This document shows, one piece after another, positions 6,563 through 53,368 of a stretch of DNA of 64,000 nt. A program made the position numbers and the translations under genes. The notes below the pieces were generated by a model. It was given only the letters and a program-made list of their open reading frames with translations, had not been told where the DNA came from and made no database searches. The DNA is taken from assembly GCF_001428895.1 (NCBI RefSeq), contig NZ_LMJA01000008.1, positions 107,350-171,349 of the forward strand, in the 5' to 3' direction. Position 1 is the first letter of the stretch; every line of letters starts with the position of its first letter. The stretch is from Mycobacterium sp. Root265. Its GTDB lineage: Bacteria > Actinomycetota > Actinomycetes > Mycobacteriales > Mycobacteriaceae.

Positions 6563-6585
6563 CGGCCCCCGCCTATCGTGGGAGC

Positions 6586-9290: not shown

Positions 9291-9291
9291 G

Positions 9292-10026
9292 CTAGCTCCC
9301 GACTGCGATACGCGGCTGGCCGGGAATCCGGCTCCTGGTCCTGATGTCCACCCGCACCCGCCCGATCCGCCCCCGGCCGGGAACCGCGGCGCCGCCGGAA
9401 CCGACCATCTCGTAGCCGCAGACCCTGGCATCCAGCCGAGCCGAGGCACCGTGCCAATCGCCGCCGGTGACCAGCAGCGTGCACCCCTTCTGCCGGGCCC
9501 GCGCGGTCACGGCCCGCGCTCTGCTCATCGGTACCGATCGCCCACCCAGCGCCAGCACCACCAGATCCAGACCATCCAGCAGGACCGCGGCCACCTCCAC
9601 CGGATCGGTGCCGGGATAAGGAATCACCGCGACCCGGCTCAGGTCGGCACCCATCTCCACCGCCGCCAGCAGACCCACATCGGGCTGCCCGACGATGGCC
9701 GCGTGCCCGCCTTCTGCGGTGGCGGCGGCCACCATCCGCAGGGCCAGTGATCTGGCCCCCGACAGCACCGCCACTGTCCCCCTGGGCAGCAGCTGAGAAA
9801 GAGGCCCGGGCACCGACGGCTCCGGCAACGCATCGTCAGGCGGTGCGATCGGCGGATCCGGGGCTTTCAGCAAAGTTTTCGCGGCCGAACTCAGGTCATC
9901 GTCGGCAGCCTTCCGCGCACCCGGGATTTCCATCCTCCCGGAGACTTCGGCTATCCTGCGGCGTAACTGTTCTACCTGTTCAGCGCGCTCTTTTCGGTGC
10001 TGCTCCAGGTCCATTGCCACCGTCAC
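9292..10026 (-). CDS. imuA': ImuA', SOS mutasome accessory protein
   Basis: 244 aa. Identified by position (directly before imuB, as Rv3395c before Rv3394c) and by its RecA-like fold remnants ([17 protein letters not shown], then [14 protein letters not shown]). A canonical intact Walker A is not present. It starts at a GTG preceded by GGAGG with a 7-nt spacer; a later in-frame ATG at 10014 is possible. ImuA' with ImuB and DnaE2 carries out damage-induced mutagenesis. A perfect LexA site lies 37 bp upstream. Confidence 0.9.
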
Positions 10027-10062
10027 AGCAGCACCTCCAGCATCATCCGAAACGGGCGTTGT

Positions 10063-10078
10063 TCGAACACATGTTCGA
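10063..10078. promoter_or_regulatory. LexA SOS box before imuA'-imuB
   Basis: TCGAACACATGTTCGA is a perfect match to the mycobacterial SOS box TCGAAC-N4-GTTCGA. It lies 37 bp before the imuA' start, so LexA would repress the operon until DNA damage. Confidence 0.95.
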
Positions 10079-10314
10079 TATCTCGAGTAAACACTCGCCG
10101 GGTCCGACAGTCAAGCGGTGGATCGCAGGGCCGGATCGGCGGCACAGGGCATCTCTCAACAATGCTTGAGTAAGGGAATGCACTGATACAGGCGCTGCGT
10201 TACAGTTTCTGACACCAGATCCCGGCCTTCAAATGGGACTGCTGCACAAGGTTTTCGCGGGCCACCGCGGCGGCCGAAGTTTCACCACACAGAGACCCCA
10301 GTAAAGGATCGAAC

Positions 10315-10566
10315 ATGGCATCAAATCGTCTGGCTCGTCGTCGGATTTCGGCAGCGGTTGGCGGTGCCGCCATCATCGCGATGATCGGCTTCACCGCGGC
10401 GTGCAGCAGTGACAGCGACAAGCCCGAAGAGTCGCCCACCACGACCACGACCACGACCGAGGTCTCGGTGACCCCGACCGAGAAGTCGCTGAACCCCGGC
10501 GGCGGCGTGTTCACTCCTCCGGTGACGGCCCCGCAGCCGACCTTCGACCCCCAGCAGAACGACTGA
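10315..10566 (+). CDS. Small secreted lipoprotein (Rv3395A-like position)
   Basis: 83 aa. The N-terminus is a lipoprotein signal: Arg-rich n-region (RLARRR), hydrophobic stretch, and lipobox FTAAC with Cys at about residue 30. The mature part is a short Thr/Pro-rich, disordered chain (SPTTTTTTTEV). It should be anchored to the outer face of the cytoplasmic membrane. M. tuberculosis has a small membrane protein gene, Rv3395A, at this position. No enzymatic function can be inferred. A strong terminator follows. Confidence 0.8.
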   Translation: MASNRLARRRISAAVGGAAIIAMIGFTAACSSDSDKPEESPTTTTTTTEVSVTPTEKSLNPGGGVFTPPVTAPQPTFDPQQND

Positions 10567-10582
10567 GCGACAACTCTGAACG

Positions 10583-10611
10583 GGGCGGGTCCGAATTTTT
10601 CGGACCCGCCC
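10583..10611 (+). terminator. Rho-independent terminator after the small lipoprotein gene
   Basis: An 11-bp perfect GC-rich stem (GGGCGGGTCCG / CGGACCCGCCC) with a 7-nt A/T loop sits 16 bp after the stop codon and just before the protease gene. There is no long T-tract, as is usual in mycobacteria. Confidence 0.8.
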
Positions 10612-10628
10612 TCAGTTCTTCTGGAACC

Positions 10629-12233
10629 ATGAGAACGGTGCTCGCCCGCTCACTGACCGCCCTGCTCCTCATCGGAGCATTGGTGCTCGCCGTCGATCTG
10701 TACGTCGACAGGCAACGCCCCGATGACAGGCTCATCGAGGGCCCTTACGCGTCCCTGCTGGATGCGTCGATCGACCTCGGGCCGGCCCGCGAGGAGAGCA
10801 TCGAGCTCACCGCCACCCTCACCGACGAATCCCAGCCCACCGCGCTGATGGACTGGGCCCGCGACCAATCACTGTCGGTGCAGTGGCGCCCAGGCGATGA
10901 CTGGGTGATCGTCGAGGGACCCCCGGCCGCCGTCGAGCAGGCGTTCGACGTCTCGGTGCGCGACTACCGCGGCAGGAGAGGACAGCTCTTCTATGCCTCA
11001 CCGCATCAGCCTGCGGTCCCCGAGCCGCTGCGCGGCGAAGTGTCCGAGATCGGCCGAATCCTCAGCTACACACCACATCACATGTCGCGCCCCGATCACA
11101 TTCCCCTCGATGTGCCCGATCAGGGCCTGGCGCCCCAGGCACTGCTGAACACCTACAACGTCGACGATCTGAACAGGGACGGCTTCACCGGAAGAGGAGT
11201 CACCATCGTGATCTTCGCCTTCGACGGTTTCCATCAATCCGACCTGGACACGTTCAGCACCACATTCGGCCTGCCGCAGTTCACCCCCGAGGTCGTCGGC
11301 GGATCGCCCGGCGAACCGCGCGGCGAACTGTCGATGGATCTTCAAGTGGCACATGCGATTGCCCCCGATGCCCGCAAGGTCGTGGTGAACGCCCGCCCCA
11401 CCGTCGAGGGTGGTGGCGGCTACCGCAAGATCGGCGAGATGCTCGAGGACACCGATCGGCAGTTCCCCGGAGCGGTGTGGAGTTTCTCGATCGGCTGGGG
11501 TTGCGACAAGCTCATCACCGCGGCCGATCTGGCTCCGGTCCGGTCCGCGCTGCGCACAGCCCAGTCCCACGGCACCACGGCCTACAACGCCAGCGGCGAC
11601 CTCGCCGGCATGGAATGCCGTGGCGGACAAGACTGGTCATCCCCGCCGAGTGAACAGGACATCGGCCTCGACTCGATCGCCTCGCTGCCCGAGATGACCA
11701 GTGTCGGCGGCACCACCCTGTCCACCGACGCCGACGGCAGGTGGGTGTCCGAGCAGACCTGGTTCGACGTCCCACTGTCGCAGGGCACCGGCGGCGGCAT
11801 ATCGGCGCTCTTCGACATGCCGCCCTGGCAGCGCACCGCGGCGGCCGCGGTTGCCCCGGACCGTCACAACGGCAAGCGCATGACACCGGATATCGCCGCA
11901 GTCGCCGATCCGTTCACCGGCGTGAAGATCGTGCTCAACGATCAGATGGTCGTCGGCGGCGGCACCTCACAGTCCGCCCCCATCTGGGCCGGCCTCACCG
12001 CGGTGATGAACCAGTGGTTGCTGGAGAACAACGGCTCCCTCATCGGCGATATCAACCCGTTGCTGTACCGCATCGCCCAGGGCGCCCCGCGGCCTGCCTT
12101 CCGCGATGTGACATTGGGCGGCAACGCCGTCGACAACGCAGGGCCCGGCTATGACCTGGTCACCGGACTGGGCACGCCCGATATCGACAACCTGGTGCGC
12201 AACCTGCAGATCGCGCAGAGAGTGGGTGCCTGA
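10629..12233 (+). CDS. Sedolisin-family (S53) serine-carboxyl peptidase, membrane-anchored or secreted
   Basis: 534 aa. A signal peptide or anchor occupies residues about 4-24. A pro-domain (about 40-150, with LTDESQP and FDVSVRDYRG typical of pro-kumamolisin) precedes the catalytic domain. The predicted S53 residues are all present: Glu233 and Asp237 (GELSMDLQVAHA), Asp324 (NASGDLAG) and Ser447 (GGGTSQSAP). A C-terminal calcium-site region (FRDVTLGGN ... GPGYDLVTGLGTPDI) is also seen. It should act outside the cell as an acid-active protease. It overlaps the next gene by 1 nt (TGATG), linking it to a zinc-ribbon membrane protein. Confidence 0.88.
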   Translation: MRTVLARSLTALLLIGALVLAVDLYVDRQRPDDRLIEGPYASLLDASIDLGPAREESIELTATLTDESQPTALMDWARDQSLSVQWRPGDDWVIVEGPPAAVEQAFDVSVRDYRGRRGQLFYASPHQPAVPEPLRGEVSEIGRILSYTPHHMSRPDHIPLDVPDQGLAPQALLNTYNVDDLNRDGFTGRGVTIVIFAFDGFHQSDLDTFSTTFGLPQFTPEVVGGSPGEPRGELSMDLQVAHAIAPDARKVVVNARPTVEGGGGYRKIGEMLEDTDRQFPGAVWSFSIGWGCDKLITAADLAPVRSALRTAQSHGTTAYNASGDLAGMECRGGQDWSSPPSEQDIGLDSIASLPEMTSVGGTTLSTDADGRWVSEQTWFDVPLSQGTGGGISALFDMPPWQRTAAAAVAPDRHNGKRMTPDIAAVADPFTGVKIVLNDQMVVGGGTSQSAPIWAGLTAVMNQWLLENNGSLIGDINPLLYRIAQGAPRPAFRDVTLGGNAVDNAGPGYDLVTGLGTPDIDNLVRNLQIAQRVGA

Positions 12234-34515: not shown

Positions 34516-35037
34516 GTGAACTCTTTCAGGCTCGTGGGCGCCACCGCGCTGGCAGCCGGCGCCCTTGTGAGCGCCGCACCGGCCCACGCCGCGCCGCTGC
34601 CCAGCTTCTGCGGGCCGGATGTTGTCGTCGACGGTGTCTGCAGCACGAGGTTGACCTCGGTGACAACCGATGTCGTCGACGGGACGATCACCGGGACACC
34701 GGTCGGCGGTGACGAGCCGATCACCCTCGCCGGACAGGGTGTCGCGTACCTGAAGTCCGACGGATTCGGCGATAGCCCGCCGGAGGCCGTCCAGAACTGG
34801 GACACCACGATCGAGCAGGTGAGCGGCCTGGACGTCTCCCCCGCCGATCCCAACTGGTACGGCAACGCCAAGGCCAGGGTGTTCCTGCCGAGAACCCTCA
34901 ACGACCTGGCCACCCATTTCCCGCCGGACAGCCTGCGCGTCCGGTTCACCGCCGACGAGGCACAACCGGGCGTGTTCCAGCTGGTGTCCATTCAGCCGAC
35001 GCTGCCCTGGGGGCCCGACGGCCGGCCCAGTCCGTAG
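34516..35037 (+). CDS. Small secreted protein of unknown function
   Basis: 173 aa, GTG start without an obvious ribosome-binding site. The N-terminus is a Sec signal peptide (residues 1-25, cleavage after AHA). The mature chain has a pair of Cys (FCGPDVVVDGVCS) that could form a disulphide. I do not recognise the family. A decayed copy of its central part lies at 40961-41089. Its last 46 bp overlap the 3' end of the adenylate cyclase gene on the other strand. Confidence 0.7.
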   Translation: MNSFRLVGATALAAGALVSAAPAHAAPLPSFCGPDVVVDGVCSTRLTSVTTDVVDGTITGTPVGGDEPITLAGQGVAYLKSDGFGDSPPEAVQNWDTTIEQVSGLDVSPADPNWYGNAKARVFLPRTLNDLATHFPPDSLRVRFTADEAQPGVFQLVSIQPTLPWGPDGRPSP

Positions 35038-36515
35038 ACACGGACAGCGGTCGACTTACCTTTCAGCCCATGCGATCCCCGGTCGAGTAGGTCGGTGACA
35101 GGTGTATCCATGGCGCGAATTACCTTTTGTGTCAGCAGGATCGAATCGCCGGTGACTTTTGTCAGCTGTTCGACGCGCGCAGCGACGTTGACGGTGTCGC
35201 CGATCAACGCGAATTCCAGATGCCCGGAACAGCCGACGGTTCCGGCGATCACCTCACCGGTGTTGATACCGATCCCGATCCGCAGCGCGCCATCGAACCG
35301 TGCGGCGACCAGATCCTGAATCCTCAGCGCGCAACTCACCGCGGCATCCGCATGGCCGTCGAGGTCGTTCGGGGCGCCGAACACGATCATCGCTCCGTCG
35401 CCCAGAAACTTGTTGACATGGCCACCCGCGCCCACAACGGTCGGCACCACGATCTCGAACAGGGCATTGAGCCGGGCCACCGTGTCTTCGGCGGTGTTGG
35501 CCTCGGCGAACGGGGTGAAGTCACGGATATCGAGGAACAGCACGGTCACTTCACGACGCTCACCGCTGAACACGTCATCGCCCTGTGACAGCAGCCGCGC
35601 GGCCAGGACCGGATCGACGTAGGTACCGAATGCGACCTGAAGCCGTTGCCGCTCTTTCAGTCCCGCCTGCATGCGATTGAATGACGCTGCCAGCGCGCCG
35701 AGGTCGTCGTCTTGAACCACCGGCAGGCGCTGACCGTAGTCTCCGGACGCGACGCGTTGGGTTCCCTTCCCCAGATCGCGGATGGGTTCCAGCAGTGGCG
35801 AATAGGACGCCCACAACGCCGGCCCGACGACGAGCACCATTGCAGCGCCGAGCATGACCGCAAGCGCCGGGCCGTGTGTGCCGACGTCGAGGAGGTCACC
35901 CAACAGCGCACCGAGAACCGCGAACGCAAAACCCACCGCCAACATGGTCGCGTTGGTCCACGTCGCGAAGGTCACCCGGGAACGCGGGAACCGGTCGCCG
36001 ATATCGGTACCCGCGATGATGGCCACCCGGGCCGGTCGCAACGCTCCCTCCACGTAGCTGTGCACCGTGATCAGCTGGCCTGCGGTGCCGGCGATGGCTC
36101 CCAGCGCCGCGTACTGGATGAGCCGCGACTCGCTCGCTCCGGCGATCGCCGCGACGCCGACGAACAGCGCCCCGGCCCACACGGCGGTGCCGATCACCGC
36201 CCGCGCGATCAGGCCGCGCCCGTACCGGTAGCTGGCGTGCAGTGCGGTCACCCGATCGACGTCGGCGCCCGCGGCCCACCGCTCGACGAGGCGTGCCGGT
36301 TCGTTGCCGGGACGGATCACGGCCAACAGGTACACCGGTACCGCGACCACGGTCAGGGCCGCCGCCGCCAGGTAGCGATCCGACTGTTCGAACGCGACGA
36401 TGCACAACGACCAGGCCAGATAGACCGGCAGCGCGAGCGGCAACGTGACCACCCAACACGCCCACGAATACCTGGCGCCGTACCGGTCCCAGGTCCATCG
36501 CCAGATGCGATCCAT
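34992..36515 (-). CDS. Membrane class III adenylate cyclase with HAMP domain
   Basis: 507 aa. About six membrane segments (residues 15-260) precede a HAMP linker (YSPLLEPIRDLGKGTQRVASGDYGQRLPVVQDDDLGALAASFN), then a class III cyclase domain from about residue 325. Metal-binding Asp residues are in FLDIRDFT and FLGDGAMIVF, and INTGEVIAGTVG and IGDTVNVAARVE are intact. It is like the Rv1318c/Rv1319c/Rv1320c/Rv3645 group and should make cAMP at the membrane. A terminator-like hairpin lies directly before its start codon. The frame extends upstream, but the start at 36515 fits the first membrane segment. Confidence 0.88.
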   Translation of the reverse strand: MDRIWRWTWDRYGARYSWACWVVTLPLALPVYLAWSLCIVAFEQSDRYLAAAALTVVAVPVYLLAVIRPGNEPARLVERWAAGADVDRVTALHASYRYGRGLIARAVIGTAVWAGALFVGVAAIAGASESRLIQYAALGAIAGTAGQLITVHSYVEGALRPARVAIIAGTDIGDRFPRSRVTFATWTNATMLAVGFAFAVLGALLGDLLDVGTHGPALAVMLGAAMVLVVGPALWASYSPLLEPIRDLGKGTQRVASGDYGQRLPVVQDDDLGALAASFNRMQAGLKERQRLQVAFGTYVDPVLAARLLSQGDDVFSGERREVTVLFLDIRDFTPFAEANTAEDTVARLNALFEIVVPTVVGAGGHVNKFLGDGAMIVFGAPNDLDGHADAAVSCALRIQDLVAARFDGALRIGIGINTGEVIAGTVGCSGHLEFALIGDTVNVAARVEQLTKVTGDSILLTQKVIRAMDTPVTDLLDRGSHGLKGKSTAVRVYGLGRPSGPQGSVG

Positions 36516-36526
36516 GCCGAACAACG

Positions 36527-36558
36527 AAACACCCCCGGCGACCGGGCCGAGGGTGTTT
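36527..36558 (-). terminator. Terminator-like hairpin directly before the adenylate cyclase start
   Basis: 13-nt arms (36527-36539 and 36546-36558) pair with one mismatch around a 6-nt loop. The sequence (ACACCCCCGGC stem after AACGAAA) is very like the terminator at 42.49 kb. It lies only 11 nt before the cyclase ATG, so it would sit in the cyclase leader. Confidence 0.55.
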
Positions 36559-36679
36559 TGACGCAGCGCACTCCCCCGGCGCTTCCCACAGGTCTCAGTG
36601 AGTGAGATCACACCTTGTTGGCCGTCCACCCCGAGAGCCACCGTGTGCTGTCTACTCCATCGGCAGGAAGAAGTACTCC

Positions 36680-42530: not shown

Positions 42531-44245
<1,715 letters not shown>

Positions 44246-44255
44246 ACACGGGTGC

Positions 44256-44555
44256 TTACTTGTTGACGACAGCCAGCACGTCACGCGCGGAGAGGATCAG
44301 GTACTCCTCGCCGCCGTACTTGATCTCGGTGCCGCCGTACTTGCTGTAGATGACGGTGTCACCTTCGGCAACGTCCAGGGGGATCCGCTTCTCGCCATCC
44401 TCGTCCCAGCGGCCGGGGCCAACTGCGACGACGGTGCCTTCCTGCGGCTTTTCCTTGGCGGTGTCGGGGATGACCAGACCGGATGCGGTCGTGGTCTCGG
44501 CCTCGTTGGCCTGTACGAGGATCTTGTCCTCGAGTGGCTTGATGTTGACTGCCAC
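44256..44555 (-). CDS. groES: 10-kDa co-chaperonin GroES
   Basis: 99 aa, GTG start preceded by [42 protein letters not shown] contains the mobile loop, and the family end [20 protein letters not shown] is complete. It caps the GroEL ring. Its leader is about 140 nt and its promoter carries a CIRCE element. Confidence 0.97.
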
Positions 44556-44692
44556 GATGGGAGCCCTCCACTTTGTTGGGTATAGGAATCCGGATCGGAT
44601 CCGGGTCCTCAATGGTTTTCAGGTGTTCGGCATGCGTCCGTACCTACGCTCCGTCGTCGCGGGTGCCGGTGCTGCGGTTGGTCGCTTGCCAC

Positions 44693-44719
44693 CTAGCACT
44701 CTATACATGAGAGTGCTAG
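44693..44719 (-). promoter_or_regulatory. CIRCE (HrcA) operator of groES-groEL1
   Basis: CTAGCACTC-N9-GAGTGCTAG is a perfect 9-bp inverted repeat with the 9-nt spacer of CIRCE. An extra overlapping half-site (GCTAGCACTC, 44715-44724) is present. Possible promoter on the minus strand: TTGAGT (44721-44726), TATAGA or TAGAGT near 44698-44705. HrcA should repress it at normal temperature. The upstream reactivase gene ends inside this element (stop at 44716-44718). Confidence 0.95.
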
Positions 44720-46299
44720 CACTCAAGGTTGGGTTGTGCAGGAGGATCGTCCGCGGCTGCCAGCACGACGAGCCCGTATGCCACGGCGAAGCGGTGACCC
44801 AACCCACCGCCGACGTTCCCGCGTCCCACCGTGACGTCGCGACCGAACCGCTCGGCCAGTGCCCGGACGAGTTCGTCATCGCCCGCTCCCCCGCCGACGA
44901 GCAGCACCGCGGTCGCACCGGGGGCCACCTGCTGCACACCGCGGGTCACATTGCCGCCGATCACCAGGCGCTTGGCCGCCAGCCGCCAGCTACGCCACTC
45001 CGCACCGGTGAGCGCGGACGTGAACGGCAGCAGCCCGCTGGGCGCGGTCGTCAGCAGCCAGCCCGTGCAGCGGCCGTCGATCGGGGTGTCCAGGAACCGG
45101 CGCCGGCCGTGTTCGTCCTCGACCAGTTGCACCGTGACCGCGGTGACCGCTTCCGTGCGTTTGGCGTACTCAGCGGCGCTCGTCGAGATGTCCAGCGCCG
45201 CCGCCGTCGCCGTCGTGAGAAGTTGCCCGGCGCCCGGCAGCACCACCCGGTCACGGTCGACCACGACGTCGACGGTGCCGCCTCCGACGTCCACGACCAC
45301 GACATCCGCCGGCAGACCCGGGGTGGTGAGTGCACCTGCCCGCGCCGCCTCGGCCTCGGAGTCGATGCGCGTGACGGGCACGCCCAGTGCCTCGGCGAGC
45401 ACGTCGGCATCCGCGGGCGGTCCGCCGTCGCCGCCCATCACCGCCATCACCAGACTGTCGACGGAAACCGCTCCGCGGCGCGAATTCGCTTGTGCGGCAA
45501 TTTCAGCCAAGTTGACTACATGTGCTGTCCCGGAAGGCAGTTCGGGTGCCGGCGCCGGCTCGGCCGCGGTGGGCGAGCTGCGCAGTATCACCACGGCACA
45601 CACACTGTCGAACAACTGATCGGCGACGACACGGGCGTCGGTGCGCTCGTCGTCGCCCAGACCGAACACATCAGCCAGCCAGAACGCATCGGTGAGCTGA
45701 TGCAGCGGCGACACACCCTCCCGCACTTCGACGGCCACCAGCTCGGCCGACAGCACCACCTCCACATCGACGTCATCGACGACCGGCACGGCGGTCGCCA
45801 GCCGGTTGGACACCAGCACGGCCTCGTCATTGGCGGTGAGGACAGCAGCGACGGTGCGGCCTGCCGCGACAGCGGCGTTCACCATCTCGGCCACCGCGGC
45901 GTAGCCGTGTTCGGTTCCCGCGCAGGCGATGACGGGGCGGTCCGGGTCCGCTCCGCCGAGACGTTCGACCGGCACCGGAACGCCGAATCCCGCGGCGTCA
46001 CCGGCCGTGGTCGCCGCCGACCGGGTGACGATGGCGAGTCGGCCGGTGCGCTGCGCCTGCACCTGGACACGCTCGACGCTGGAGTGCACGGGACGGGTCG
46101 GCGCGAAAGCCGCCCGCTCGATGGTCAGTCCGTGCTTGTCCGCCAGCCGCCGGACCAGTTGCGCGGCCCCATGGACCGCCCGCACGGAGCCCTTGCCGCC
46201 CCGCGTCGGGGTGCGCGCATTCGCCAGGACTTCCAGATCACGGCACAACACCACCTCGGTGGTCGCATTGCCGATGTCCACACCGGCCCACACGGTCAT
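44716..46299 (-). CDS. Diol/glycerol dehydratase reactivase, large (ATPase) subunit
   Basis: 527 aa, somewhat shorter than the usual 600-610. The actin-like ATPase fold shows WAGVDIGNATTEVVL at the N-terminus, VVVVDVGGGTVDVVV in the middle and AVLLVGGGAGDDELV near the end. This is the DdrA/GdrA/PduG family, which swaps damaged cobalamin out of the dehydratase using ATP. It overlaps the small-subunit gene by 4 nt. No gene for the small reactivase subunit (DdrB/PduH) is visible in the window. Its last three codons and stop lie in the groES CIRCE region. Confidence 0.88.
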   Translation of the reverse strand: MTVWAGVDIGNATTEVVLCRDLEVLANARTPTRGGKGSVRAVHGAAQLVRRLADKHGLTIERAAFAPTRPVHSSVERVQVQAQRTGRLAIVTRSAATTAGDAAGFGVPVPVERLGGADPDRPVIACAGTEHGYAAVAEMVNAAVAAGRTVAAVLTANDEAVLVSNRLATAVPVVDDVDVEVVLSAELVAVEVREGVSPLHQLTDAFWLADVFGLGDDERTDARVVADQLFDSVCAVVILRSSPTAAEPAPAPELPSGTAHVVNLAEIAAQANSRRGAVSVDSLVMAVMGGDGGPPADADVLAEALGVPVTRIDSEAEAARAGALTTPGLPADVVVVDVGGGTVDVVVDRDRVVLPGAGQLLTTATAAALDISTSAAEYAKRTEAVTAVTVQLVEDEHGRRRFLDTPIDGRCTGWLLTTAPSGLLPFTSALTGAEWRSWRLAAKRLVIGGNVTRGVQQVAPGATAVLLVGGGAGDDELVRALAERFGRDVTVGRGNVGGGLGHRFAVAYGLVVLAAADDPPAQPNLEC

Positions 46300-46655
46300 C
46301 GCAGCAGGCCGCGCCGCCGATACACGACCGCAGCCTCGCGTACCAGCGCGGCGCAGGTGGGTGCCTCGTGCGCGTCGAGACGCCCGGCCAACTCCTCCAG
46401 GTCGTCGAACGTCGAACGACCGGGACGCAGCGCTTCGTAGGCCGCCAGCATGTCCTCGGCGCTCAGCGCCGTCATCTCGGCGGCGCGACGCAGGTTCAGG
46501 CCCAGCTGGAGCGACCCGCTGCGCTCGGCGTTCTCCGCCTGCTTCAGCAGGGTCTCGCGACTGATGCGGATGTCGTCCAGGACGAGGTCGCCGTTACAGG
46601 CGGCCTCGACGGTGACCTCGGTGACGCTGCGTCCCGAGTGCGAAAGCGTGCTCAT
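46296..46655 (-). CDS. Diol dehydratase small subunit (PduE-like)
   Basis: 119 aa. The middle LVLDDIRISRETLLKQAENAERSGSLQLGLNLRRAAEMTALSAEDMLAAYEALRPGRST is characteristic of the gamma subunit of B12-dependent diol/glycerol dehydratases. The start ATG overlaps the stop of the fused large/medium subunit gene (ATGA), and its stop overlaps the reactivase start. Shorter than enterobacterial PduE (about 173 aa), lacking its N-terminal extension. Confidence 0.88.
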   Translation of the reverse strand: MSTLSHSGRSVTEVTVEAACNGDLVLDDIRISRETLLKQAENAERSGSLQLGLNLRRAAEMTALSAEDMLAAYEALRPGRSTFDDLEELAGRLDAHEAPTCAALVREAAVVYRRRGLLR

Positions 46656-48928
46656 CGCGTGAACTCCATGTCCATGTGCTGGGGGCGTTCGTTGCCATGC
46701 AGGGACTGGCATTCGGCCCGCTCGATGGCAACCATCGACACGACCCGTGTGTGATAGCGCGCCGTGATCGCCTCGTCGCTGTAGGCGTTGCGCATGGGCG
46801 ATGGTGTGGTGCCCTTGGCGTGCCGGCCGGCGTTGATCCCGATGATGCGGTACATCTCCGGGGTGATGAGCGGTGCCACACTGAGCAGTTCCAGGTTGGC
46901 CAACGGCGGCAGGTCACGTCGGTGGATCAACGTGGTGCCCTTGGCCTGTAGGCCCACCCCGATGCCGGACCCGGACAGCCCGGCGGCCGATTTGCCGATC
47001 GCGCCGAGATCGATGCTGTCGGCGATCCGGACCAGCCGTGGCACACACTTCTCCTCCTCCAGGCCGGCCAGGATCTGCTCGAGGGCGTCATAGACCGTCA
47101 TCCCCGACAGCGTGCGAAACAGGCTGGCGCCGAACGCGGGTGACAGCCCGACGACGACCTCGCGCGGGTCCGTGCCCACGTGGGACGGACCGAGTACCCG
47201 CAGCCGTTCCGGCTCGGCGAACCTCGCCTGCTCGCGGACGAGGTCGGTCACCGAACGGGCCTGTCGCACCGCGTCGATCTGGGCCTGCCGCTCGGGGGTG
47301 GGCCGGTACCCGGTTCCGGGACCGCGATAGTCATTCGGATCCTCCAGCGCGGACAGCACGTTCATCTCCTCGTCGAAGATGGCGGCCGTCTGCAGGTAGT
47401 CGCCGATCACGCGGGCCCGCGACATGCCCAGCACCCGGTCGGCCAGGTCGGTGAATCCGGTCTCGGCGAGCGCGGTGACGACGTCGAGTACCGTCAGCCC
47501 CGACTGGTCGATCATTCGGGCGGCGCTGAGGATCTTCACGCCGTCGTTCTCGGGCAGATCCTTCGAACCCGCCGCCCCGACAACGGCTTCCACGTGGTCG
47601 TCGTCGAAGTCGGCCAACCCCAGGTACTCGAACACCGCACGGGTGGCCTCGGCGGCCTGTCGGCGCATCGCCTCCAGCGTCGTCGGATCACAGGACCGCA
47701 GCCCGCCGTCGACCCCCCAGTCCCGCTGCATCACCAGGTAGTCGTCCAGGTCGTCGGCATTGAAGTTGGACGGCCCGAACATGTTGTCGTAGGAGACCAC
47801 CGAACCGAAGCCGGAGAAGATGAAGTCCGATCCCGACAGCAACGTCGGCAGCGTGCGACTGGTGCGGCGCATGGTCGACTCGCTCATCAACGAGTCGTTC
47901 CCGCTGCAGGATTCGAGCCCACGCAACATGACCATCAGGTTCTCGGCATGGAGTTCCTTGACGCCGCCGGGCACCGAGGCGGTGATCGCCGCCCCGTCGA
48001 CCCCGCCATTCTGCACCCCCTGGGCGCCGATGCCCTTGGCCAGCGCGACACAGCGGGCCTCCAGGTAGTTCATCGACTTGCCCTCGGCGGCGCCCATCAG
48101 CACCTCCGACCCGGCGCCGCTGGACAGCCGCATCTTGATGCCGCGCGACGCATAGGACGATGTCAGGAACGCCTTGGACCACGGGGTGTCGTCGCCGTCG
48201 GTGAAGACCTGCTCGGTGCCGTAGACCGATACCGTCTCGGCGTACGAGACCAGCCCGCGCACACCGAGTTCCAGCTCGCGCGCTTCCTCGACCGAGCACT
48301 GCGTCAACGCCCCCGGCGCCGGCACCTGCGAACCGATCAGCAACCCGATCGCCACCGCGGGCGCGTCGTCGAGCACCGGCACGGTCGCCTCGAGCTCCCG
48401 GAAGCCGTACACGACGGCGGTGGCGGCGTCGGCCGCGATGAGCAGCGGGTCGTCGAGGCGGTTGGTGACGTGCGCCTGGTTGGCCGGGGTGCGCCGCGCC
48501 CGCATCTTCATCATCGCCATCTGGATCTCGACGGGGTGCAGGCCCGCCACCACCCGGGCCATCTTGGCCGGGGTCAGCCCCGAGCACACCTTCAGCACGT
48601 CCGCGCGCGGCACGTTCGAGTCGACGATGAGCCGAGCCACGTCGACCTCCGACATCGCCATCGACTCACGCGCCTGGGTGTGATCGACGGCGTAACGCAC
48701 CACGAACTCGTCGATGGTGTCGAAATCCGCGGCCGGGGTGGAGTCCATCTCCAGCACCGTGCCGTCGTCGTCCACCACCCAGGACGGTTCCGGGTCGTGC
48801 GGGGAGAGATGAGAGATCATGCCCAGCGCGGGGTTCGGTTCGGCGAAGCCGTCGAGGTTGACGCGTTGCTCGTCGAGCAGACGAATGCGGCCGAGCCGGC
48901 GATCCGGTTCGGGTTCGGGGCTGTTCAC
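46652..48928 (-). CDS. B12-dependent diol/glycerol dehydratase, fused large and medium subunits
   Basis: 758 aa. Residues about 20-555 align with PduC: RARRTPANQAHVTN, SYAETVSVYGTEQVFTDGDD and DNMFGPSNFNADDLDDY. Residues about 575-750 align with PduD: EVVVGLSPAFGASLF, LSGSGIGVGLQAKGTTLIH and LPPLANLELLSVAPLITPE. These are separate genes in enterobacteria. It should dehydrate 1,2-propanediol or glycerol, or a similar vicinal diol, to the aldehyde with adenosylcobalamin. A GTG at 48928 follows AGAGAGG at 6 nt; an ATG at 48958 is the alternative start. No shell-protein genes are nearby. Confidence 0.9.
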   Translation of the reverse strand: MNSPEPEPDRRLGRIRLLDEQRVNLDGFAEPNPALGMISHLSPHDPEPSWVVDDDGTVLEMDSTPAADFDTIDEFVVRYAVDHTQARESMAMSEVDVARLIVDSNVPRADVLKVCSGLTPAKMARVVAGLHPVEIQMAMMKMRARRTPANQAHVTNRLDDPLLIAADAATAVVYGFRELEATVPVLDDAPAVAIGLLIGSQVPAPGALTQCSVEEARELELGVRGLVSYAETVSVYGTEQVFTDGDDTPWSKAFLTSSYASRGIKMRLSSGAGSEVLMGAAEGKSMNYLEARCVALAKGIGAQGVQNGGVDGAAITASVPGGVKELHAENLMVMLRGLESCSGNDSLMSESTMRRTSRTLPTLLSGSDFIFSGFGSVVSYDNMFGPSNFNADDLDDYLVMQRDWGVDGGLRSCDPTTLEAMRRQAAEATRAVFEYLGLADFDDDHVEAVVGAAGSKDLPENDGVKILSAARMIDQSGLTVLDVVTALAETGFTDLADRVLGMSRARVIGDYLQTAAIFDEEMNVLSALEDPNDYRGPGTGYRPTPERQAQIDAVRQARSVTDLVREQARFAEPERLRVLGPSHVGTDPREVVVGLSPAFGASLFRTLSGMTVYDALEQILAGLEEEKCVPRLVRIADSIDLGAIGKSAAGLSGSGIGVGLQAKGTTLIHRRDLPPLANLELLSVAPLITPEMYRIIGINAGRHAKGTTPSPMRNAYSDEAITARYHTRVVSMVAIERAECQSLHGNERPQHMDMEFTR

Positions 48929-49028
48929 GGGTGGCCTCTCTACATCGCTGGTGGACATCTCGTCGCGTGGACACAGCATCAGCCCGGGCGGTGCAACGGA
49001 CAACGGTATGCCGCGACCTTCCAACAAC

Positions 49029-49047
49029 ATGTGTGAGAACGACACAT
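49029..49047. promoter_or_regulatory. Candidate operator between dehydratase and permease genes
   Basis: ATGTGT-N7-ACACAT is a perfect inverted repeat 101 bp before the dehydratase start. Just before it, CAACAACATGT at 49022 resembles the second candidate site at 49077. Confidence 0.4.
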
Positions 49048-49076
49048 CTTCACCCGCCGATGGTGTGAGCCGATTA

Positions 49077-49089
49077 CAACAAGATGTTG
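49077..49089. promoter_or_regulatory. Second candidate operator between dehydratase and permease genes
   Basis: CAACA-AGA-TGTTG is a perfect 5-bp inverted repeat. It shares CAACAA(C/G)ATGT with 49022-49032, 55 bp away. TTCCAACA (49019-49026) and TGTTGGAA (49085-49092) are also mutually inverted. The PucR-type regulator two genes away is the likely binder. Confidence 0.4.
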
Positions 49090-49190
49090 GAAAGTGACGC
49101 AGACCTCTGGCAGACGTCCCGACCGTCTCGCAGACTTTCCCCGAACTCGGAGCCGACGAACCGTGGCTCCGCGCCCAGAGGAGGTTCACC

Positions 49191-50624
49191 ATGTCCGAAA
49201 CTGTCAACACGGGCGACACGCGCAGCGGCGCAAAGCCACCGGGTACCCGCGGCCACCTGCGCGGCAACCTGGGCGTGCCGGCGATCGTGCTGATGGTGGT
49301 GGCCGCGGCGGCACCGCTGTCGACCGTCGGCGGCAACGTCCCGATCGCCATGGCGCTCGGCGACTCCACCGGCATCCCGGTGGCGTTCCTGGTGGCCGGC
49401 GTGATCTTCCTGCTGTTCGCCGCGAGCTTCGTGGCCATGTCGAAGTACGTGAGCGACACCGGCGCCTTCTACGCCTACATCCAGAAGGGCCTCGGCAAAG
49501 CCGTCGGTACCGGTGCGGCGGTGCTGGCGCTGCCCGCCTACATGGCGACGCTGCTGGCGGTCGCCGCCTACGACGGCGTCATCCTGTCCAGTCTGCTGGA
49601 GATCGTCGGCGGTCCGGCCGTGCCGTGGTGGGTGCTGACCGGTCTGGTGCTGCTGATCATCGCGTTCCTCGGCTACCGCGACATCGATCTCAGCGCGAAG
49701 GTGCTGGGCGTCTTCCTGGTTTCGGAGGTCGCCATCCTCGTGGTGCTCGACTTCGTCATCGTGGTGCAGGGCGGCGACAAGGGCATCACCGGCGACTCAT
49801 TCACCCCGTCCGGCATCTCGGGCGCCTTCGGCATCGCGCTGCTCTACGCCCTGTGGGGTTTCGTCGGCGTGGAGGCCACGGCCGTGTTCCGGGACGAGGC
49901 AAGGGATCCCGACCGGACCGTCCCGCGCGCCACGTACTGGGCAGTGGGCATCGTGGCCAGCTTCTACGCCTTCTCCAGCTGGGCTCTCGTCGAGGGCAAC
50001 GGCGGCAACGACGCCATCCAGGTCGCCAAGGACGACCCGGACAACTTCATGGTCAACACCGCCGAGAAGTACCTCGGCATCCTCGGCAAGGACCTCACCA
50101 CCCTGTTCTGGTTCGTCAGCGTGTTCGCGTGCGCGCTCGCCTTCCACAACATCTGCGCGCGGTACACCTTCGTGCTGGGCCGGGACAACGTGCTGCCGAA
50201 GAAGTTGGGCGAGGTGCACCCCAAACTGGGTTCGCCGGCCAACGCCTCGGTCCTGATCACCGTGCTGTCGATCGTGCTCATGGGGACGTTCGCCGCGATC
50301 GGCCTCGACCCGGTGCTGCAGATCTTCGGTCCGCTGGGCGGGCTGGGTATCTGGGGGCTGTCGATCCTGTGGCTGCTGACCACGATCTCGGTCGGGCTCT
50401 TCTTCAAGCGGCGCGGCGGGCCGGCCAACATCATCGTGCTGGCCGTCGTGGCGACGATCGTCCTGGCGCTGGCGGTGGCGTTGATCATCGCGAACCTGAC
50501 GCTGGTCGTCGGCGGCTCCACCACGCTGGCCATCATCTTCGGCATCGCGCCGGTGGTGTTCCTGGCGATCGGCGCCGCCTTGAGCGGCCGGGCACCGGAC
50601 GACCTGTCGGCCCCCGCACCCTGA
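49191..50624 (+). CDS. APC-superfamily permease (amine/amino acid), dehydratase-linked
   Basis: 477 aa with about 12 membrane segments. APC features include LRGNLGVPAIVLMVVAAAAPLSTVGG in TM1 and GFVGVEATAVFRDEARDPDRTVPRA in the TM6-TM7 region. Divergent from the diol dehydratase operon and 94 bp before a PucR-type regulator. Context suggests uptake of an amino alcohol or amine that feeds the dehydratase pathway, but this is inference. It is only distantly like the permease at 1.2-2.7 kb. Confidence 0.85.
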   Translation: MSETVNTGDTRSGAKPPGTRGHLRGNLGVPAIVLMVVAAAAPLSTVGGNVPIAMALGDSTGIPVAFLVAGVIFLLFAASFVAMSKYVSDTGAFYAYIQKGLGKAVGTGAAVLALPAYMATLLAVAAYDGVILSSLLEIVGGPAVPWWVLTGLVLLIIAFLGYRDIDLSAKVLGVFLVSEVAILVVLDFVIVVQGGDKGITGDSFTPSGISGAFGIALLYALWGFVGVEATAVFRDEARDPDRTVPRATYWAVGIVASFYAFSSWALVEGNGGNDAIQVAKDDPDNFMVNTAEKYLGILGKDLTTLFWFVSVFACALAFHNICARYTFVLGRDNVLPKKLGEVHPKLGSPANASVLITVLSIVLMGTFAAIGLDPVLQIFGPLGGLGIWGLSILWLLTTISVGLFFKRRGGPANIIVLAVVATIVLALAVALIIANLTLVVGGSTTLAIIFGIAPVVFLAIGAALSGRAPDDLSAPAP

Positions 50625-50718
50625 TCGCGAAGAGCGCCCTCGGCACCTCGCGGGTCGCTGATACCGTCGCATTGCGGCGGTGTCGGCGACCCGCCGGGTT
50701 CGAGAGGAAACGGGCGAC

Positions 50719-51765
50719 ATGTCTCAGCGCGCGCCACTGACGGTGGCGACGGCCCTGACGGTCCCGCCGCTGGATCAGGGGTCGGTGCTCGGCGGGCACC
50801 GCGGGCTGAACCGCGAGGTGCTGTGGGTGGACATCATGCACGCGCCCGCCGAAGACTTCGTCCGGCCCGGTGACTTCGTCCTGACCACCGGTACCGACAT
50901 CCGCCAGCCCGGCGTCCGCGAGTTCCTCACCTTCCTGATGTCGTCGCCCGCGGCCGGGGTGGCGCTGGGTGGGCCACCCGATATCGACACCCGCGAACTG
51001 CTGTCGACGCTGGTCCCGCTGGCCGATCGGCATGAATTCCCGCTGGTGATGCTGCCGTGGGAGGTGCCCTTTGCCGATATCCAGCGCCAGCTGCTCCCAC
51101 TGGTCAGCGCCGCCCCCGACGACCCGCCGATCCAGATGGTCATCGGCAGGCGAGAGGACGACGACCCGCACTGGGCCGAGCACGCGCACGCGTTTGCCGC
51201 GAGGTTGGCACGGTTGGCACTCGGCGCTGGTATCACCCCGAAGATATCGATCACCGAAGACCTGGTGATGAGTCACTTCTCGGCGCCGCTGTCCGCGTCG
51301 GCCGGCTCCGAACTGGTCGAATCGGCCTGGCAGTCCAGCGGTCTCCCGGAAAGCCTCATCAGCTGGGTGCTGCTGCCGCCGGGGCACGGCCACTCCGTCA
51401 CCGTGGCCGCAGCCGCGGTACCCGACGGCCCCGTCGGTCCCCGGCAGTTCGCCGAGGTGCTGCGCCAGCACCCCCGGAGCATGGCGACCATCCTGAAAAC
51501 GCTGCAGCCACTGGTGGATTACGACAAGACTCGCCGCGGCCAGCTGGTGCACACCCTGGAGATCCTGCTCAACGAGGCCACCAACACCAGCGCGGCCGCG
51601 CGAGCGCTGTACCTCAATCGGCATTCGTTGCTGTACCGGATCAAGCTGATCGAGGAGTTCACCGGGCTGTCGCTGAAGAACCCCGCCGACCGCTTCCAGC
51701 TGGAGGTCAGTGTGCGCGTGCACCAGATCAACGAGGCGCGCAACGACTGCGCGCTACCGCAGTGA
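50719..51765 (+). CDS. PucR-family transcriptional regulator
   Basis: 348 aa from the ATG at 50719, downstream of GAGAGGA. N-terminal purine-catabolism-regulator-like domain (residues about 10-130: GHRGLNREVLWVDIMHAPAEDFVRPGDFVLTTG). C-terminal helix-turn-helix of the PucR/CdaR type (LLNEATNTSAAARALYLNRHSLLYRIKLIEEFTGLSL). Such proteins activate adjacent catabolic and transport genes. It is likely to control the permease and the divergent dehydratase operon. Confidence 0.88.
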   Translation: MSQRAPLTVATALTVPPLDQGSVLGGHRGLNREVLWVDIMHAPAEDFVRPGDFVLTTGTDIRQPGVREFLTFLMSSPAAGVALGGPPDIDTRELLSTLVPLADRHEFPLVMLPWEVPFADIQRQLLPLVSAAPDDPPIQMVIGRREDDDPHWAEHAHAFAARLARLALGAGITPKISITEDLVMSHFSAPLSASAGSELVESAWQSSGLPESLISWVLLPPGHGHSVTVAAAAVPDGPVGPRQFAEVLRQHPRSMATILKTLQPLVDYDKTRRGQLVHTLEILLNEATNTSAAARALYLNRHSLLYRIKLIEEFTGLSLKNPADRFQLEVSVRVHQINEARNDCALPQ

Positions 51766-51888
51766 GCCCTGCTCCTCGCGGGCGAACGTGTCGGCCTGGC
51801 GACCCAGCACGGCGCCGACACCGTCGAGGTCACCGGCGTCGATGAGTTCGGCGTCCCGGCAAAGCAATCCGAGAACGTCGTACGTCAC
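51754..51888 (-). pseudogene. 44-codon ORF after tsaD, possible SnoaL/NTF2-like remnant
   Basis: The GTG at 51888 overlaps the tsaD stop (GTGA), the spacing used throughout this operon. The product (YDVLGLLCRDAELIDAGDLD...) looks like the first helix of SnoaL-like proteins, then stops at 51754, inside the 3' end of the convergent PucR gene. It may be a truncated gene marking the edge of the dehydratase insertion, or simply a short peptide. Confidence 0.35.
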
Positions 51889-52907
51889 GCCACCTGTCCC
51901 TTGACCACCGGCAGCCCCGGATCACTGGCCGCATCCAGCCCCGATGCCGGCGCCCCCGCGGCGATGAGGTGCGCCGCGAACGACGCGATCATCGCGCCGT
52001 TGTCGGTACACAGCCGGGGCCGAGGCACCCGCAGCGTCAACCCGGCCGCCGCGCAACGCTGCTCGGCGAGTTCCCGCACCCGCGAGTTGGCGGCCACCCC
52101 GCCGGCGATCAGCAGGGTCGACACCCCGAGATCGGTCGCGGCGCGCACCGCCTTGGCGGTCAGCACGTCGGCGACGGCCTCCTGGAACCCGGCGGCCACA
52201 TCGGCGCGCGGTGCGTCCGGGTGTTTCTCCAGATGACGGGCGACGGCGGTCTTGAGGCCGGAGAAGCTGAAGACATACGGCGCATCGCGGGGCCCGGTCA
52301 TCCCACGCGGGAACACGATCGCGTCGCGGTTCCCGGTGCGGGCCAGGTCGTCCAGCGGCTTACCGCCGGGGTAGCCGAGGCCGAGGAGCCGGGCGACCTT
52401 GTCATAGGCCTCCCCCGCCGCGTCATCGACGGTGCTGCCCAGTTCGATGATCGGTTCGCCGAGTGAGCGCACGTGCAGCAGGTTGGTGTGCCCGCCCGAG
52501 ACGAGCAGCCCGACACATTCGGGCAGCGGGCCGTGGTCGTACACATCGGCGGCCAGGTGCCCGCCGAGATGGTTGACCGCGTAGAACGGCACCTCCCAGG
52601 CGGCCGAATACGCCTTGGCGGCAGCGACTCCCACCAGCAGGGCACCGGCCAGCCCCGGGCCGATGGTGGCGGCGACGACATCGGGCCGCGCGATGCCGGC
52701 GATGTCCAGGGCGCGGCGCATGGTAGGGCCGAGTGCCTCCAGGTGGGCGCGGGACGCGATCTCGGGCACCACGCCACCGAAGCGCGCATGCTCATCGACG
52801 CTGGAGGCCACCTCGTCGGCCAGCAGGGTGACGGTCCCGTCGTCGTCGAGCCGTGCGATACCGACTCCGGTTTCGTCACAGGAACTTTCGATGGCCAGGA
52901 TGATCAT
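51885..52907 (-). CDS. tsaD: tRNA N6-adenosine threonylcarbamoyltransferase TsaD
   Basis: 340 aa. [17 protein letters not shown] start, metal-binding [11 protein letters not shown], and [20 protein letters not shown] are intact. It transfers threonylcarbamoyl to A37 of ANN-decoding tRNAs with TsaB and TsaE. It overlaps rimI by 4 nt, as in Rv3419c-Rv3420c. Confidence 0.96.
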
Positions 52908-53368
52908 GCCGGGTCTCGCTTCATGGTGTAGGCGTCGGCGCCGCTGACCTTGTAATACCGCTTGCGCACGCCCACCGTGGCGAAGCCGACGCTCTTGTAC
53001 AGGTTGATGGCCGCCTCGTTGTCGGTGCGGACCTCCAGGAACACCTCACCGCGGGCGGCGAAACTCAGCAGGTCATCGAGTAGCCGGCGCCCGATACCGC
53101 GGCCCTGGTAGGCCGGGTCGACGCCGATGGTGTGCACCTCGTACTCGTACGGTGGGATCCGGCCCAGCCGCGAGATGCCGGCGTAGCCGATCAGCCGGCC
53201 CTCATCGCGGGCCGCCACATAGTGGTTGTGCTTGCCGTCCAGGGCGTGCAGGAACGCCGCCGGCGGCCAGGGGTCGTCGCCGGCGAACAACTGGGATTCC
53301 AACTCGGCGCAACGGGCCGCGTCAGCCCGGGTCAGCGCGTCGATGGGCGTTTGGTCAGGACCGGTCAC
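52904..53368 (-). CDS. rimI: Ribosomal-protein-alanine N-acetyltransferase RimI
   Basis: 154 aa from a GTG that overlaps the tsaB stop (GTGA). GNAT fold with acetyl-CoA motif [19 protein letters not shown] and C-terminal [18 protein letters not shown]. RimI acetylates the N-terminus of ribosomal protein S18 in the classic case; in mycobacteria a broader N-alpha specificity is reported. Longer starts upstream would run through tsaB and are rejected. Confidence 0.93.

What the first reader, a model, noticed from the sequence alone, without database searches (positions are those of the whole stretch)
44716..51765. B12 diol dehydratase locus with fused subunits and no visible microcompartment
A PduC-PduD fusion, a short PduE and a reactivase ATPase sit with an APC permease and a PucR regulator between groES and tsaD. 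No shell, aldehyde dehydrogenase or small reactivase genes are within the window. The toxic aldehyde product would be free in the cell, or the substrate may be different, for instance an amino alcohol taken up by the permease.
Basis: partly seen in the sequence, partly recalled or inferred. Interest (0 to 1): 0.75.

Follow-up and report, generated by a model that had tools for sequence, protein, structure and literature searches.

The report
Fused B12 dehydratase with altered pocket
A soil-type mycobacterium carries a vitamin-B12 dehydratase whose two main subunits are welded together and whose substrate pocket has gained a negative charge, which suggests that it works on an amine-bearing diol rather than on glycerol, without a protein shell around it and perhaps without the usual second half of its repair machine.

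Summary
In detail: a PduC-PduD fusion, a short PduE and a divergent reactivase overlap as in an operon, divergent from an APC permease and a PucR regulator, between groES and tsaD. No shell, aldehyde dehydrogenase or PduH gene was found in the window. The natural fusion is already in print.

Beyond that: 58 of 59 fused proteins examined (window included) have Asp where known enzymes have Ser301, with a small residue at Gln336. Ser301 meets C3 of glycerol. The ten catalytic residues checked are kept in the 57 aligned. The Asp proteins form one supported clade. Outside the mycobacterial cassette most of their loci carry amine genes; some are microcompartment loci, one like the described RMM2.

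PduH was found in 0 of 58 such loci, against 22 of 23 unfused ones; 12 of 12 genomes with only the fused enzyme have no PF02288 protein besides the fusion. The beta-swap model of reactivation therefore seems not to apply there.

Best reading: a cytosolic dehydratase for a cationic 1,2-diol such as 3-amino-1,2-propanediol. The substrate is inferred, not shown.

The parts
46652..48958 (-). PduC-PduD (alpha-beta) fused B12 dehydratase subunit, 768 aa from ATG
   Evidence: Pfam PF02286 at 19-569 and PF02288 at 605-717 of the 766-aa frame read; NF011979 885.8 bits, over its cut-off of 788, NF011616 (medium subunit) 158.9 under its cut-off of 248; start and length
47996..47998 (-). Asp codon (GAC) at the position of Ser301 of Klebsiella diol dehydratase; residue 321 of the fused protein
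   Evidence: alignment to 1iwp numbering, codon; Asp in 57 of 57 aligned unique loci of this group, window included, plus L138
47891..47893 (-). Ser codon at the position of Gln336
46296..46655 (-). PduE (gamma subunit), 119 aa from the ATG that overlaps the PduCD stop
   Evidence: PF02287 106.6 bits; NF011977 191.3 bits, under its cut-off of 230; start chosen from the 4-base overlap
44716..46299 (-). divergent, shortened reactivase large subunit (527 aa; the unfused system's is 622 aa)
   Evidence: PF08841 and PF18427; TIGR04491 177.6 bits, under its cut-off of 400; alignment
48959..49190 (.). divergent intergenic region between PduCD and the permease
   Evidence: read; no Rfam match up to E 1 in 44000-53000
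49191..50624 (+). APC-family permease, 35% identical to the permease of an RMM2-like locus (L083)
   Evidence: PF13520/PF00324
50680..51765 (+). PucR-family regulator
   Evidence: PF07905 and PF13556
44256..44612 (-). flank: groES (named by eye)
51885..52907 (-). flank: tsaD
   Evidence: PF00814

Best explanation
It is an intact-looking coenzyme-B12 diol dehydratase of a distinct clade (alpha and beta fused, Asp301, small 336). Shown by sequence: the ten catalytic residues checked are kept, the pocket residue that meets C3 of the substrate has changed from Ser to Asp throughout the clade sampled, PduH was not found in the clade's loci, and this assembly has no shell gene. Inferred: the permease takes up an amine; the two vicinal hydroxyls of a 1,2-diol bind as in known enzymes; Asp301 (with the kept Asp335) holds an ammonium group on C3; dehydration gives an amino-aldehyde (for 3-amino-1,2-propanediol, 3-aminopropanal), which soluble dehydrogenases oxidise in the cytosol. 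Damaged coenzyme is released by the lone reactivase large subunit acting on the tethered beta domain, not by exchange of beta subunits. PucR probably switches the divergent promoters.
For: Pocket: Asp at 301 in 57 of 57 unique loci of the group and Ser in 38 of 38 others; 336 is S/T/A/N (25/10/13/9) versus Q in 37 of 38; Q141, H143, E170, E205, E208, E221, Q296, D335, S362, F374 invariant in the 57. PMC7674605 (passages): the C3-OH of glycerol points to Ser301 in the pro-S and to Asp335 in the pro-R conformation. The Asp proteins are one clade among 42 dereplicated rows: bootstrap 100, 98.3/99 (SH-aLRT/bootstrap) after removing 13 columns. Context (stretches of 5-24 kb): APC permease like the window's in 29 of 30 close mycobacterial loci; among 28 other Asp301 loci class III aminotransferase in 18, APH kinase in 13, RMM2-like SDR in 14; 0 of 23 unfused loci for each. 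Glycerol channel (MIP) 0 of 58 versus 8 of 23. Agrobacterium and Shinella plasmids with a 48% identical fused enzyme also have Asp301, a phosphotransferase and a class III aminotransferase. Own genome: an unlinked APC (60%), APH kinase (40%) and SDR (62%) set like that of RMM2-type loci, no shell. PduH: 0 of 58 Asp301 loci versus 22 of 23 unfused; 12 of 12 genomes with only the fused enzyme have just one PF02288 match, the fusion itself.
Against: No substrate, product or expression data. The mycobacterial cassette itself has no aminotransferase or kinase beside it (0 of 30). APC permease and PucR families are broad; 5 of 23 unfused loci also have a matching APC permease, and the same 5 have eutB, so amine neighbours are not exclusive to the fused form. 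Ten of the 28 other Asp301 loci show no aminotransferase in the stretch held, some of them cut by contig ends. The loci share ancestry, so counts are not independent. I had no coordinates to place Asp301 in 3D; the AlphaFold model was poor (mean pLDDT 56.1). This genome does have a PduH, which could serve both enzymes. I recall no well-known natural source of 3-amino-1,2-propanediol.
Confidence: 0.45

Rival explanations
1. It is a glycerol or 1,2-propanediol dehydratase tuned to resist suicide inactivation in an aerobe: the fusion and the change at 301/336 keep glycerol out of the inactivating (pro-S) pose, so the beta-exchange partner PduH became dispensable.
For: PMC7674605 (passages): S301A and Q336A lower kinact with glycerol (1.15 to 0.22 and 0.081 per min), and an engineered alpha-beta fusion inactivated more slowly in a lysate assay. 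PduH was not found across the clade, and the genome of the sister fused protein (G566) has no PF08841 reactivase. In print the mycobacterial fusions are called glycerol dehydratases.
Against: Asp is invariant rather than just non-Ser, many loci carry amine genes, and a glycerol channel is seen in 0 of 58. In M. smegmatis the two tags that may be the fused forms (my guess, not checked) read higher on cholesterol than on glycerol (PMC4881515 passages).
Confidence: 0.25
2. It acts on 1-amino-2-propanol (or another vicinal amino alcohol), releasing ammonia and propanal like ethanolamine ammonia-lyase but on a PduC scaffold, as a B12 branch of the RMM pathway.
For: RMM2-like loci pair this enzyme with a permease, kinase, SDR and aminotransferase, and the SDR of RMM loci is linked to amino-2-propanol in PMC4207490 (passages).
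Against: The metal and diol ligands checked are kept, so both hydroxyl sites look intact, and Asp301 faces C3, which in 1-amino-2-propanol is a plain methyl group. A kinase route for that substrate exists in RMM (recalled).
Confidence: 0.12
3. It dehydrates a larger polyol or amino sugar alcohol; the small residue at 336 makes room.
For: The two Rhizobiaceae versions sit inside a sugar-type ABC transporter operon; a redesigned enzyme taking longer 1,2-diols is reported in the title of Yamanishi 2012, seen only in the reference list of PMC7674605.
Against: 46 of 56 Asp301 loci outside Rhizobiaceae show an APC permease like the window's or RMM2's; a sugar transporter was not searched for there.
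Confidence: 0.13

Closest known systems
Klebsiella glycerol dehydratase DhaBCE / diol dehydratase PduCDE (1iwp, 1dio)
   Same: alpha, beta and gamma domains and the ten catalytic residues checked
   Different: alpha and beta fused, S301D, Q336 to small, 365 S to G, 380 D to N; 49% identical to the unfused enzyme of the same genome
Natural fused dhaB1-dhaB2 of Mycobacterium, Mesorhizobium and Hyphomicrobium (PMC4777399 passages, which cite Liu 2010; PMC7674605 section 12)
   Same: the same fusion; a 'slightly different' active site was already noted there (which residues: not seen)
   Different: in print they are treated as glycerol dehydratases, and PMC4777399 speaks of absent reactivation genes in these genera; here a divergent large reactivase subunit is found in 30 of 30 mycobacterial cassette loci, and this genome has a second, unfused set with PduH
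RMM2 microcompartment locus (PMC4207490, passages)
   Same: a diol dehydratase next to permease, aminotransferase, phosphotransferase and short-chain dehydrogenase; seen here with the fused Asp301 form and shell genes in L083
   Different: the window genome has no shell, only weak partial matches to the acylating AldDH (best 44.5 bits), and its amine module is on another contig
PduG/PduH (DhaF/DhaG) reactivase
   Same: ATPase-like and swiveling domains of the large subunit
   Different: 95 aa shorter than that of the unfused cluster, middle region mostly missing; PduH in 0 of 58 Asp301 loci

Membership tests
B12-dependent diol/glycerol dehydratase (PF02286/PF02288/PF02287) | all three subunit domains | tested here: met
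B12-dependent diol/glycerol dehydratase (PF02286/PF02288/PF02287) | catalytic and metal-binding residues Q141 H143 E170 E205 E208 E221 Q296 D335 S362 F374 (list partly recalled) | tested here: met
glycerol / 1,2-propanediol dehydratase in the strict sense | Ser301 and Gln336 in the substrate pocket | tested here: not met
   Asp and Ser in the window protein
glycerol / 1,2-propanediol dehydratase in the strict sense | turnover of glycerol or 1,2-propanediol | not testable with these tools
   needs an enzyme assay
Pdu-type metabolosome | shell proteins (PF00936) in locus or genome | tested here: not met
   0 matches in the assembly; 2 of 14 controls ring
RMM2 metabolosome | dehydratase homologous to that of an RMM2-like locus | tested here: met
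   60% identity to the protein of L083
RMM2 metabolosome | shell and acylating AldDH | tested here: not met
   no PF00936; AldDH matches only partial and weak
RMM2 metabolosome | APC permease, APH kinase, SDR | tested here: met
   present, but unlinked, on contig C28 (L131)
RMM2 metabolosome | class III aminotransferase orthologous to that of RMM2 | tested here: inconclusive
   one lies beside the C28 set but is only 24% identical; the best-scoring one in the genome is 32%
PduGH reactivase | large subunit over the PduG model cut-off | tested here: not met
   177.6 bits against 400
PduGH reactivase | small subunit PduH | tested here: not met
   not in the locus or window; the one in the genome belongs to the unfused cluster

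The most novel reading that the evidence does not exclude
A clade of B12 dehydratases specific for cationic amino-diols, making free amino-aldehydes in the cytosol, and reactivated by a single-subunit chaperone that works on a tethered beta domain, so that exchange of beta subunits is not part of its repair cycle.
Probability: 0.3. Interest if true: 0.72.

Novelty: new variant of a known kind. Interest (0 to 1): 0.55.

Why it matters
Some of the three B12 'glycerol dehydratases' listed for M. smegmatis (PMC8088520, table passage) may be mislabelled if they are the fused form. The clade is a natural test of the beta-subunit swap hypothesis for reactivation: the review PMC7674605 (section 12, read) says that how fusion affects reactivation is unknown, and here nature has fused beta to alpha while the swap partner is missing. 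It also offers a candidate substrate class for the diol dehydratase of RMM2, which PMC4207490 (passages) left open.

Tried and rejected
Cobalamin riboswitch or other known RNA near the operon: no match up to E 1. Structure prediction of the fused protein from 15 sequences (of the 37 of the window): mean pLDDT 56.1, pTM 0.38, discarded, no fold search run. Idea that the locus belongs to a microcompartment elsewhere in the genome: rejected, no PF00936. Idea that the fusion is a sequencing artefact: rejected, one frame in all 58 Asp301 proteins. Idea that fusion and Asp301 are one event: weakened, L124 (genome G566) is fused but has Ser301/Ala336 and branches next to the Asp301 clade, so fusion seems older, given a root on the Klebsiella enzyme. 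Idea that the whole clade is shell-free: rejected, 10 of 21 Asp301-bearing genomes searched have PF00936, including 4 of 5 with the mycobacterial cassette, where the shell gene is on another contig or about 1 Mb away. Idea that the fused lineage lacks all reactivation genes: rejected for most loci, 53 of 58 have the large subunit. Literature: in the listings, and in the passages read, I saw nothing that links an Asp at 301, or amino-diols, with these enzymes; the term 'amino-1 2-propanediol' had 0 occurrences in the 20 papers listed of 184. Liu 2010 and Yamanishi 2012 were not seen, so priority of the pocket change is open.

Rows dropped or corrected: the unfused loci lying on the minus strand were read on the wrong strand and are void; one search replaced them. 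Of the 60 places, the seven unfused ones without a locus were not read for residues, nor the two pieces of a broken copy in G099. Gene calls come from my own scoring and contain some shadow frames; the counts in the report rest on tblastn except groEL. Controls for PF02286 and PF02288 ring in 0 of 14 genomes, so they show specificity only.
Full report
What is there. Between groES and tsaD lie five genes. Reading leftwards from 48958 are a fused PduC-PduD, a short PduE and a reactivase large subunit, each overlapping the next by four bases; reading rightwards from 49191 are an APC permease and a PucR regulator. All pass their main Pfam cut-offs. Against NCBI's stricter models the large-subunit part passes (885.8 against 788 bits), while the medium-subunit part (158.9 against 248), PduE (191.3 against 230) and the reactivase (177.6 against 400) fall short. 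No shell gene, aldehyde dehydrogenase or PduH was found in the window by tblastn.

The rest of the genome. The window's assembly (6.67 Mb, 30 contigs, 100% complete by the tool's figure) has two PF02286 genes. The second belongs to an ordinary unfused cluster, pduE-C-D-G-H, with an aldehyde dehydrogenase and a MIP channel on one side and an APC permease with eutBC on the other. PF02288 occurs three times: PduD and PduH of that cluster and the beta part of the fusion. PF00936 shell domains are absent, while 2 of 14 controls (E. coli, Synechococcus) ring. On contig C28 a permease (60%), a kinase (40%) and an SDR (62% identical to those of RMM2-type loci) sit with a class III aminotransferase that is only 24% identical. 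So this organism seems to run its B12 and aminoalcohol chemistry without microcompartments; that is inference from gene content.

Relatives. A scan of one genome for each of 84,980 species with the fused protein gave 36 loci: 28 at 85-96% identity, all titled as mycobacteria but for L054 (an 'Acidobacteria' MAG), and eight at 60-64% in other, mostly actinobacterial, MAGs. Of 397 genomes of the order, 50 had PF02286; of 396 of the phylum, 10 had a relative of the query at 1e-60. The close mycobacterial cassette (30 loci) keeps the permease in 29, PucR in 27, PduE and reactivase in 30, but lies beside groEL in only 13 of 30 in the stretches held, so it has probably moved about.

The pocket. Residues were numbered from 1iwp. 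The Asp group of 57 unique loci, window included, has Asp at 301 in 57 of 57 and Ser 25, Thr 10, Ala 13, Asn 9 at 336; the other group has Ser in 38 of 38 and Gln in 37 of 38. The ten catalytic residues checked never vary in the Asp group. Eight of 545 columns are a near-fixed class switch (95% or more in both groups), and three of these are absolute in both: S301D, S365G and D380N. L138 was read apart and also has Asp. All 58 Asp proteins are fused; one fused protein (L124) has Ser301 and Ala336, and Asn at 208. Among 42 rows dereplicated at 92% the Asp proteins form one clade, bootstrap 100, and 98.3/99 when 13 columns are left out. Rooted on the Klebsiella enzyme, L124 is their sister (96.8/100), so the likely order is fusion, loss of Gln336, then Asp301. 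That order depends on the root.

What that position does. From the review PMC7674605 I read passages and section 12. The C3-OH of glycerol points to Ser301 in one pose and to Asp335 in the other. A conserved carboxylate there, next to Asp335, suits a cationic group on C3. With both diol-binding sites kept, the simplest substrate is a 1,2-diol with an amine on C3. This is inference; I had no structure of such a protein and my model was too poor to use.

Neighbours. Of 28 Asp301 loci outside the close mycobacterial group, 18 have a class III aminotransferase, 13 an APH kinase, 14 an RMM2-like SDR, 17 the APC permease, 13 an HbpS-like gene, 11 an amidase of the FmdA/AmdA family and 7 shell genes. 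In 23 unfused loci the aminotransferase, kinase, SDR and amidase are seen in 0; 21 have HbpS, 8 a MIP channel, 5 eutB with an APC permease, and 1 a shell gene. The 30 close mycobacterial loci have 0 aminotransferases, 0 kinases and 4 SDRs. L083 resembles the described RMM2 locus, that is RMM genes plus a diol dehydratase (PMC4207490, passages), whose authors leaned to the view that this compartment does not use the dehydratase. Seven further clusters have aminotransferase, kinase and SDR beside the fused enzyme and no PF00936 anywhere in their genomes (G183, G321, G337, G203, G036, G045, G012). Agrobacterium and Shinella plasmids carry a 48% identical fused enzyme with Asp301 beside a sugar-type ABC transporter, SDRs, a phosphotransferase and a class III aminotransferase, and no reactivase on the plasmid (their chromosomes were not searched). 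One locus (L087) has a glutamine-synthetase-like protein that also matches the gamma-glutamylputrescine synthetase model, far under its cut-off (159.2 against 650). Loci share ancestry, so these counts are not independent trials.

Reactivation. In the published swap hypothesis (PMC7674605 passage) the reactivase's beta subunit replaces that of the dehydratase. In the Asp301 clade the dehydratase's beta is covalently bound to alpha, and PduH was not found: 0 of 58 loci against 22 of 23 unfused ones (the exception, L089, is a 12.5-kb contig). Of the 50 genomes, 12 have only the fused enzyme (a broken copy in G099 left aside), and 12 of these 12 have a single PF02288 match, the fusion itself (the least complete is 91%). 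The large subunit is found in 53 of 58 loci. In an alignment of six of them the window's and that of L071 lack most of the middle part, while RMM2-type ones keep more of it. The sister fused protein's genome G566 (97% complete) has no PF08841 reactivase. So either the fused enzyme seldom needs rescue, or a one-subunit mechanism exists. The window's genome is not a clean case, since its other cluster could lend a PduH.

Prior work. The natural fusion in Mycobacterium and Mesorhizobium, with a 'slightly different' active site, is credited to Liu 2010 in PMC4777399 (passages), which also speaks of absent reactivation genes; the mycobacterial loci seen here do have the large subunit. Tables list three M. 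smegmatis 'glycerol dehydratases' (PMC8088520, PMC4881515; passages). MSMEG_1547 lies near eutBC (MSMEG_1553-1554), like this genome's unfused gene, so the other two may be the fused forms; I did not check their sequences. PMC8217296, PMC11303327 and PMC9604228 were read in passages only. That the kinase of the RMM compartment is an aminopropanol kinase is recalled, not read.

Verdict. It is a new variant of a known enzyme family rather than a new system. Its value lies in two sharp tests: substrate preference tied to one residue, and reactivation without a swap partner.

Noticed in passing
L003 (own genome contig C9), 34-16749: A complete unfused pduE-C-D-G-H cluster with HbpS-like, MIP channel, AldDH, APC permease and eutBC in one stretch, no shell genes: B12 diol and ethanolamine chemistry side by side without a microcompartment.
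   Followed up: partly
L131 (own genome contig C28), about 6105-10972: Permease, APH kinase and SDR like those of RMM-type loci, plus a different class III aminotransferase, in a genome without PF00936.
   Followed up: partly
L062-L066: Fused Asp301 dehydratase loci of uncultured bacteria titled as actinobacteria; four of the five (not L065) show shell genes in the stretch held, five of five an FmdA/AmdA amidase and an Amidohydro_3-type enzyme, and four of five (not L066) a match to the urease gamma-beta protein read by Pfam in L064.
   Followed up: no
L137 (G566), 8063-10706: Fused PduC-PduD with Ser301/Ala336 and Asn at 208, in a genome without a PF08841 match: a possible early stage of the fused lineage.
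   Followed up: partly
window 1159-3560: A second APC permease next to a universal stress protein gene.
   Followed up: no
window 34992-36641: HAMP plus adenylate/guanylate cyclase catalytic domain protein.
   Followed up: no
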